From Chondrosia reniformis (Eukaryota > Porifera > Demospongiae > Chondrillida > Chondrillidae): 64,000 bases of DNA. Position numbers and translations under genes: made by a program. Shown in pieces: positions 5,355-5,476 of this stretch; positions within the stretch are counted from its first letter, which is position 1; the number at the start of each line of letters is the position of its first letter. Under the pieces are notes generated by a model. It searched no databases, was not told where the DNA came from, and worked only from the letters and a program-made list of their open reading frames with translations. Location of the stretch: NCBI GenBank assembly GCA_947172415.1, contig OX359195.1, positions 3,695,501 through 3,759,500 of the forward strand. Reading direction: 5' to 3'.

Positions 5355-5476
5355 GTCGTGGGAATTGGAGGCTTTGGTTCCGAGCTGACAAGAGGATGGG
5401 TATTGTCCAGTTCAACCCCCCGACGGAGCAGGGTGCTTAGCCCTTCATGTGGCATCCTGTGGCTAAATCAGCCTCC
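5355..5476 (+). ncRNA. Candidate HDV-like self-cleaving ribozyme at the 5' end of copy 1
   Basis: The first 122 bases can form the nested double pseudoknot order of HDV-like ribozymes. P1 is GTCGTGGG (5355-5362) with CCCCCGAC (5417-5424), seven pairs and one T-C mismatch. P2 is GGAGGCT (5367-5373) with AGCCTCC (5470-5476), perfect. P4 is CAGGGTGC (5429-5436) with GCATCCTG (5452-5459), eight pairs. The joining strand before P2' reads TGGCTAAATC, so a cytosine is available at the place of the catalytic C. P3 and L3 are not convincing: 42 bases lie between P2 and P1', with GACAA/TTGTC as one possible stem. R2-type elements are known to carry such ribozymes at their 5' end; this instance is inferred by hand folding. 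Confidence 0.42.

What the first reader, a model, noticed from the sequence alone, without database searches (positions are those of the whole stretch)
5355..5476. HDV-like ribozyme candidate marks the 5' end of an R2/NeSL-like element
Three helices in the HDV order (P1 with one mismatch, P2 7 bp perfect, P4 8 bp) and a joining strand GGCTAAATC are present in the first 122 bases, and are kept in copy 2 (9732-9853). The 5' end of P1 falls at the border with satellite, which is where such ribozymes cleave in R2-type elements. P3/L3 is unusual or I have placed it wrongly: 42 bases where a short hairpin is expected.
Basis: partly seen in the sequence, partly recalled or inferred. Interest (0 to 1): 0.72.

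Follow-up and report, generated by a model that had tools for sequence, protein, structure and literature searches.

The report
Self-cutting RNA fold in sponge retrotransposon
The first 122 bases of a jumping gene in a sponge genome fold like a known self-cutting RNA, exactly at the point where dozens of copies begin, which suggests that the jumping gene cuts its own RNA out of the ribosomal RNA transcript in which it sits.

Summary
The observation largely holds. Window 5355-5476 can form the HDV-like nested double pseudoknot. Copy 2 keeps the main helices, but its P1.1 and J4/2 are mutated. Rfam has no hit, and covariation cannot be tested (copies about 96% identical).
The strongest evidence is junctional: 53 of 59 copies with distinct flanks begin exactly at base 5355. 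The 14 columns read upstream carry at most 0.46 bits; the first 12 element columns at least 1.73.
The element is a non-LTR retrotransposon whose reverse transcriptase is nearest to R2 among solved structures. In rDNA its 3' end runs into the last 52 nt of 18S rRNA, then 5.8S and 28S. Its first five bases, GTCGT, part of P1, are also 18S target bases. I infer cleavage AAAA/GUCGU inside an 18S co-transcript; satellite copies would be off-target insertions carrying that RNA end.
The genome matches the sponge Chondrosia reniformis. Self-cleavage is not shown; P1 has a mismatch and L3 is atypical. Verdict: new variant of a known kind.

The parts
5355..9718 (+). Element copy 1: non-LTR retrotransposon; 5' end GTCGTGGG, 3' end TTTTTCAAGTA (the last five bases AAGTA are also 18S target bases)
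   Evidence: 5' boundary' boundary
9732..14063 (+). Element copy 2, head-to-tail with copy 1, degenerate; its ribozyme has P1.1 GG>AG and J4/2 GGC>GAC
5355..5476 (+). HDV-like ribozyme candidate of copy 1
5355..5361 (+). P1 5' strand GUCGUGG; first five bases equal the 18S target GTCGT; inferred cleavage 5354/5355
5418..5424 (+). P1 3' strand CCCCGAC (one U-C mismatch at 5359)
5367..5373 (+). P2 5' strand GGAGGCU (8th pair G5374-C5469 in the other copies aligned; copy 1 has T at 5374)
5470..5476 (+). P2 3' strand AGCCUCC
5376..5379 (+). P3 5' strand GGUU
5414..5417 (+). P3 3' strand AACC
5380..5381 (+). P1.1 5' strand CC at the start of L3
5425..5426 (+). P1.1 3' strand GG
5382..5413 (+). Hairpin inserted in L3 (8 bp with one bulged C)
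5428..5460 (+). P4 stem-loop, 5428-5437 paired with 5451-5460
5461..5469 (+). J4/2 GGCUAAAUC; C5463 is the proposed catalytic cytosine
   Evidence: role inferred from the HDV family
5671..8664 (+). ORF with reverse transcriptase domain (RVT_1)
8721..9446 (+). ORF with CCHC motif and a putative restriction-like endonuclease motif (motif recalled, not matched by a profile)
9680..9696 (+). 3' UTR near-copy of 18S just downstream of the insertion site: all 16 bases of GTAACAAGGTTTCCGT plus one inserted base

Best explanation
5355-5476 is an HDV-like self-cleaving ribozyme at the 5' end of an 18S-rDNA-targeting non-LTR retrotransposon of a sponge. Shown here: the sequence can form the full fold, and copies share one exact 5' end at the first base of P1 with unrelated bases upstream. 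Also shown: three rDNA copies run at their 3' end into the end of 18S rRNA, and the element's first five bases equal 18S target bases. Inferred: the element is transcribed as part of the pre-rRNA, and the ribozyme cuts AAAA/GUCGU inside the upstream 18S sequence. The freed RNA keeps a GUCGU end that can match the target's upstream bases during second-strand synthesis. When reverse transcription is primed at satellite or elsewhere, the new copy still starts with GTCGT, so off-target copies record the RNA 5' end.
For: Descriptor with P1, P2, P3, P1.1, P4 and C-N-A-R in J4/2 met at 5355 and at the start of 41 of 59 distinct-flank copies; shuffles 0 of 60000 at equal score; P3 plus P1.1 by chance 0.0004-0.0026. 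53 of 59 copies begin at base 1; the 14 upstream columns read carry 0.46 bits or less and columns +1 to +12 carry 1.73 or more. In those 53, 45 flanks look like satellite and 8 do not. The 3' flank of L065 matches SSU_rRNA_eukarya model positions 1780-1831, E 1.2e-17; L066 and L067 have the same flank by eye. 5.8S and LSU follow on the same strand in L065 and L066, not found in L067. One visible 5' junction with 18S target bases reads AAGTAAAAGTCGT + GTCGTGGG (L063, the same locus as L023). Tandem 19-nt 5' pieces that restart at GTCGT in L021 look like template jumps from RNA ends at +1. PMC3774820 (sections 12, 14, 15, 16 and part 1 of 17, read) reports the same arrangement for R2: 28S bases in P1, cleavage upstream of the junction, and direct duplications of target sequence at some 5' junctions.
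Against: No Rfam HDV match at 5250-5600 even at E 10. P1 has a U-C mismatch; PMC3774820 reports a one-mismatch P1 (horseshoe crab) with no detectable activity in vitro. L3 is 34 nt instead of the short loop seen in the arm family of the same genome, and the conserved L3 G cannot be placed with confidence. No pair in A1 has a compensatory change: 0 of 38 pairs over 35 distinct rows, no better than shuffles. The unpseudoknotted minimum-energy fold of the majority sequence (-43.0 kcal/mol) has P1 and P4 but not P2. Descriptor hits of equal or higher score occur elsewhere in the window. The 5' junction with 18S bases rests on one locus of tandem copies, for which I did not show neighbouring rRNA genes; the search for more did not complete.
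Confidence: 0.77

Rival explanations
1. The fixed 5' end is a transcription start site of the element's own promoter; the helices serve translation, packaging or protein binding rather than self-cleavage.
For: Junctions alone cannot separate a start site from a cleavage site. No in vitro test; Rfam silent.
Against: Does not by itself predict P3, P1.1 and the J4/2 C in register with that end, nor that the first five bases equal 18S target bases.
Confidence: 0.1
2. A former HDV-like ribozyme that has lost activity through the L3 insertion and the P1 mismatch; the present 5' ends are inherited from source RNAs made another way or long ago.
For: L3 of 34 nt, P1 mismatch; 18 of 59 distinct-flank copies fail the descriptor (some because they are 5'-truncated).
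Against: The majority sequence of the copies keeps every core element, and the best 40 copies are 96-100% identical to copy 1 over up to 406 bases; off-target copies at unrelated flanks still start at +1.
Confidence: 0.1
3. Chance helices in a GC-richer 5' UTR.
For: Some satellite stretches score as high with the same descriptor.
Against: 0 of 60000 fixed-start shuffles at equal score and coincidence with the exact element end.
Confidence: 0.03

Closest known systems
R2 retrotransposon 5' ribozymes (PMC3774820)
   Same: HDV-like fold at the 5' end of an rDNA element; host rRNA bases form part of P1; cleavage inferred upstream in the rRNA; target-sequence duplication at some 5' junctions; RT nearest to R2 in the PDB
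   Different: Target is the 3' end of 18S, not 28S; only 5 nt of rRNA retained (R2 reported 9-36 nt where cleavage is upstream); 34-nt L3 with hairpin; no Pfam match in the N-terminal 330 residues
R8 of Hydra (18S-inserted member of the R2 superclade; passage in PMC5035012)
   Same: Non-LTR element inserted in 18S rRNA genes
   Different: Exact R8 site and protein not compared here; nearly all copies whose 5' end I read lie outside rDNA
R4 clade ribozymes (R4, Dong; PMC3774820)
   Same: HDV-like ribozyme cleaving at the element 5' end
   Different: No R4 sequence was available for comparison; this element has an 18S target
Porifera R2-homologous elements (PMC13188248, passages)
   Same: Sponge, R2-related RT
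   Different: Those are described as having variable flanks that are not the canonical 28S site; a term count of the main text gave 0 for '18s' and 0 for 'chondrosia'

Membership tests
HDV-like ribozyme | Nested double pseudoknot P1, P2, P3, P1.1, P4 in HDV order | tested here: met
   P1 has one mismatch
HDV-like ribozyme | Cytosine in J4/2 followed by N-A-R | tested here: met
   GGCUAAAUC 5461-5469; the C and the UAAA after it are invariant in A1
HDV-like ribozyme | Short L3 with U, CC and a conserved G | tested here: inconclusive
   U-CC present, but L3 is 34 nt with a hairpin and the conserved G is not placed
HDV-like ribozyme | Match to Rfam HDV models | tested here: not met
   No match up to E 10 at 5250-5600; a recognition test, not a definition of the fold
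HDV-like ribozyme | Compensatory changes in the helices | tested here: inconclusive
   0 of 38 pairs; copies about 96% identical
HDV-like ribozyme | Self-cleavage 5' of P1 | not testable with these tools
   Indirect only: element 5' ends at that base
R2 clade | Reverse transcriptase of the R2 type | tested here: met
   5 PDB sequences matched at E 0.01 or better: three named R2, two named 'reverse transcriptase-like protein' (8gh6, 8ibw; that these are R2 of Bombyx is recalled); best E 1.4e-18. No non-R2 clade member was compared
R2 clade | Restriction-like endonuclease with CCHC | tested here: inconclusive
   CCHC visible; R2 alignment E 0.16, behind a PRDM9 zinc-finger match at E 0.015; model too poor, pLDDT 34
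R2 clade | N-terminal zinc finger and Myb domain | tested here: inconclusive
   No Pfam match in the 330 aa given; helix triplets in a low-confidence model, pLDDT 48.7
R2 (28S-specific) | Insertion in the 28S R2 site | tested here: not met
   rDNA copies seen sit at the 18S 3' end
R8 (18S-specific) | Insertion in 18S rRNA genes | tested here: met
   (L065); the same flank in L066 and L067
R8 (18S-specific) | Groups with R8Hm in an RT tree | not tested
   No R8 sequence available
NeSL | NeSL-type protease domain and SL or snRNA/tRNA target | not tested
   No dedicated test; Pfam gave only RVT_1 above cut-off in the 7 ORFs given

The most novel reading that the evidence does not exclude
An HDV-like ribozyme whose catalytic loop L3 carries an inserted hairpin domain and whose P1 5' strand is borrowed from the host's 18S rRNA. 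It frees a sponge retrotransposon from pre-rRNA with a five-base rRNA tag, and that tag is written into the 5' end of off-target satellite copies, giving a genomic record of in vivo cleavage.
Probability: 0.6. Interest if true: 0.65.

Novelty: new variant of a known kind. Interest (0 to 1): 0.55.

Why it matters
R2 ribozymes that use host rRNA bases in P1 are known for the 28S site. This would be the same trick at the 3' end of 18S, in a sponge, where R2-related elements have been reported without the canonical 28S target (PMC13188248, passages). The off-target copies give an independent readout of the RNA 5' end. An HDV-like core that tolerates a 34-nt structured L3 would widen the search models, since Rfam misses it.

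Tried and rejected
Rfam scans: nothing at gathering in the window; one unrelated sub-threshold lncRNA hit at 5446-5544 at E 4.3. RF00094 over the genome found a different ribozyme family; none of its 81 listed hits is this one. Covariation on 53 copies was uninformative. Relatives in the bacterial/archaeal genome collection and in viral contigs: none. Two other LINEs fetched as possible relatives (L110, L111) have by my reading a PHD-plus-endonuclease layout and are distant (25% identity over about 300 residues). AlphaFold of single sequences was too poor to use; no fold search was run. Rejected: the idea that the element begins with satellite bases (flanks vary), and the idea that the satellite is the native target.

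Full report
What is there. The window lies in a 117,379,552-base genome of 15 contigs. Contig 15 is 17,451 bases. The abstract of the Chondrosia reniformis genome paper gives 117.37 Mb, 14 chromosomal pseudomolecules and a 17.45-kb mitochondrial genome (PMC12181767, abstract and passages). The identification as that sponge is my inference from these numbers. A 13-bp satellite surrounds the finding. Two head-to-tail copies of a 4.36-kb element lie at 5355-9718 and 9732-14063; the shared blocks that were listed are 94-97% identical.

The fold. The HDV topology then demands a P3 next to P1' and a P1.1 pair between L3 and the bases after P1'. Both exist: GGUU/AACC and CC/GG. In the other copies aligned base 5374 is G and adds an eighth P2 pair (33 of 35 distinct rows keep it). 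The weak points are a U-C mismatch in P1, an L3 of 34 nt, and an unplaced conserved L3 G. PMC3774820 (sections 12 and 16, read) says that about a quarter of R2 ribozymes have one or two mismatches at the top of P1, and that a one-mismatch P1 in horseshoe crab showed no activity in vitro.

Chance. I wrote the descriptor after seeing the candidate. With the start fixed, 0 of 60000 dinucleotide shuffles reach the observed score and 5 give any hit; 69,608 shuffled bases of the element region give one weaker hit. The real window gives 8 starts on the + strand and none on the - strand. Three of the seven others score as high or higher (31634, 53060 and 30825), and five of the seven lie in the satellite array at 14080-33269. 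So the descriptor is not specific in AT-rich repeats and must be read with position.

The 5' end. I collected copies by a DNA search (40 scored of 237 candidates, 30 loci fetched) and by fetching 20 + 20 predicted 5' ends. All 30 of the first set gave a row. Of the first 20 fetched, 14 gave a row; one (L047) matches only from base 196 and five gave no match. Of the second 20, 18 gave a row. With L063 and window copy 2 this makes 64 rows. After dropping five duplicate flanks (exact 25 nt), 59 remained; one further copy (L066) had been left out before because its 5' end is not visible. 53 of the 59 start at base 1, and one each at 3, 4, 5, 10, 23 and 54. Because the queries began at base 1, 5'-truncated copies are under-represented; the proportion is not an estimate of full-length copies. 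A few of the 53 may be duplicates of one insertion: 17 pairs share 80-92% of the last 25 flank bases, nearly all in satellite, and L026/L027 share 92% outside it. The test that matters is the column profile in the 53: positions -14 to -1 hold 0.02-0.46 bits, positions +1 to +12 hold 1.73-2.0 bits. 45 of the 53 flanks look like satellite by a simple word count and 8 do not. The same pre-formed end thus lands at different sites. L021 carries extra 19-nt 5' pieces that each restart at GTCGT.

The native target. The 3' end reads TTTTTCAAGTA in most of the copies listed; a few differ (for example L071, L075, L077). In three loci (L065, L066, L067) the next bases are AAAGTCGTAACAAGGTTTCCGTAGG. In L065 the stretch from AAGTA on matches SSU_rRNA_eukarya positions 1780-1831 of 1831 at E 1.2e-17; I cut the query at that base, so the five bases AAGTA are shared between element end and 18S. 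5.8S and LSU follow on the same strand in L065 and L066; none was found in L067, L088 or L089. The exact 23-base 3' junction occurs 6 times in the visible genome. Two of these (L088, L089) are copies lacking the 5' part that carry extra 18S bases downstream and then unrelated sequence, so they look like read-through products. The 3' UTR also carries a near-copy of the 18S bases just downstream of the site (alignment score 27, against a maximum of 26 in 2000 shuffles). I conclude that the target is AAGTAAAAGTCGT/AACAAGG near the 3' end of 18S. The element's first bases GTCGT, the 5' strand of P1, equal the last target bases before the insertion. The one visible 5' junction with 18S bases reads AAGTAAAAGTCGT-GTCGTGGG (L063, same locus as L023); there the 18S bases follow the 3' end of another copy, and I did not test that locus for rRNA genes. 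A five-base match by chance is about 1 in 1000 (my arithmetic).

Mechanism. PMC3774820 describes R2 ribozymes whose P1 includes 28S bases, so that cleavage falls upstream in the rRNA, and direct duplications of target bases at some 5' junctions (sections 12, 14, 15 and part 1 of 17, read). The simplest reading here is the same at 18S: co-transcription, cleavage AAAA/GUCGU, a freed RNA with five rRNA bases, then target-primed insertion. The satellite copies would be off-target products of such RNAs. Co-transcription, cleavage and annealing are inferred; the fold as a possibility, the fixed end and the 18S site are shown.

The element. The ORF at 5671-8664 has RVT_1 at E 1.5e-28. The five PDB sequences it matches at E 0.01 or better are named R2 (three) or reverse transcriptase-like protein (two). 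The C-terminal ORF shows a CCHC motif with a weak R2 alignment (E 0.16, below a PRDM9 zinc-finger match at 0.015). Pfam finds nothing in the 330 N-terminal residues given, and single-sequence models are too poor to judge. Stop-free frames of 1317 aa are listed for several copies, so intact copies probably exist. I do not file it as R2 because the 28S site is not met. It shares the 18S target with R8 of Hydra (passage in PMC5035012), but placement with R8 was not tested.

Covariation. On 53 copies (35 distinct rows) 98.2% of cells pair but no pair has changes on both sides, and shuffles do as well. The copies are too similar for this test. As a positive control from the same genome, a separate family on chromosome arms has the canonical fold and 2 of 26 pairs with changes on both sides over 9 distinct rows. 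1 of 500 shuffles reaches its covariation score and its count of both-side cells, 125 of 500 reach its count of such pairs, and all 500 reach its number of pair types.

Literature. Nine paper searches were answered. In their listings I saw no paper on a ribozyme or an 18S-specific element in Chondrosia. That is a statement about these listings only.

Noticed in passing
L031-L040 (chromosome arms; oriented ribozyme at about 1503-1580): A second HDV-like ribozyme family with the canonical fold (L3 UCCUCGU or UCCCCGC, P1.1 CC/GG, G-U at the P1 end, GCNAAAA-like J4/2) and compensatory P4 changes; 81 sub-threshold RF00094 hits listed in the genome (25-31.6 bits), 10 read. In most pairs compared it sits near one end of a roughly 1.1-kb similar stretch; no shared long ORF seen.
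   Followed up: partly
L021, upstream of the element start: Repeated 19-nt pieces GTCGTGGGAATTGGAGGCC before a full copy, like template jumps from the RNA 5' end.
   Followed up: no
L088 about 4848, L089 (- strand) about 5264: Copies lacking the 5' part, with no rRNA gene found nearby, whose 3' end carries extra 18S bases AAAGTCGTAACAAG(G), like read-through transcripts inserted elsewhere.
   Followed up: partly
window 9680-9696: 3' UTR near-copy of 18S just downstream of the insertion site, one inserted base.
   Followed up: partly
window 33819-35821: Two overlapping ORFs, the second with RVT_1 (E 1.1e-8); the wording suggests a Penelope-like element (label recalled).
   Followed up: no
window 43356-50898, - strand: Several ORFs that read like fragments of other non-LTR elements; not analysed.
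   Followed up: no
copies across the contigs: 39 of the 40 copies lie between 2.2 and 5.4 Mb of their contigs, in the interior; a centromere-like location of the satellite is possible but was not tested.
   Followed up: no
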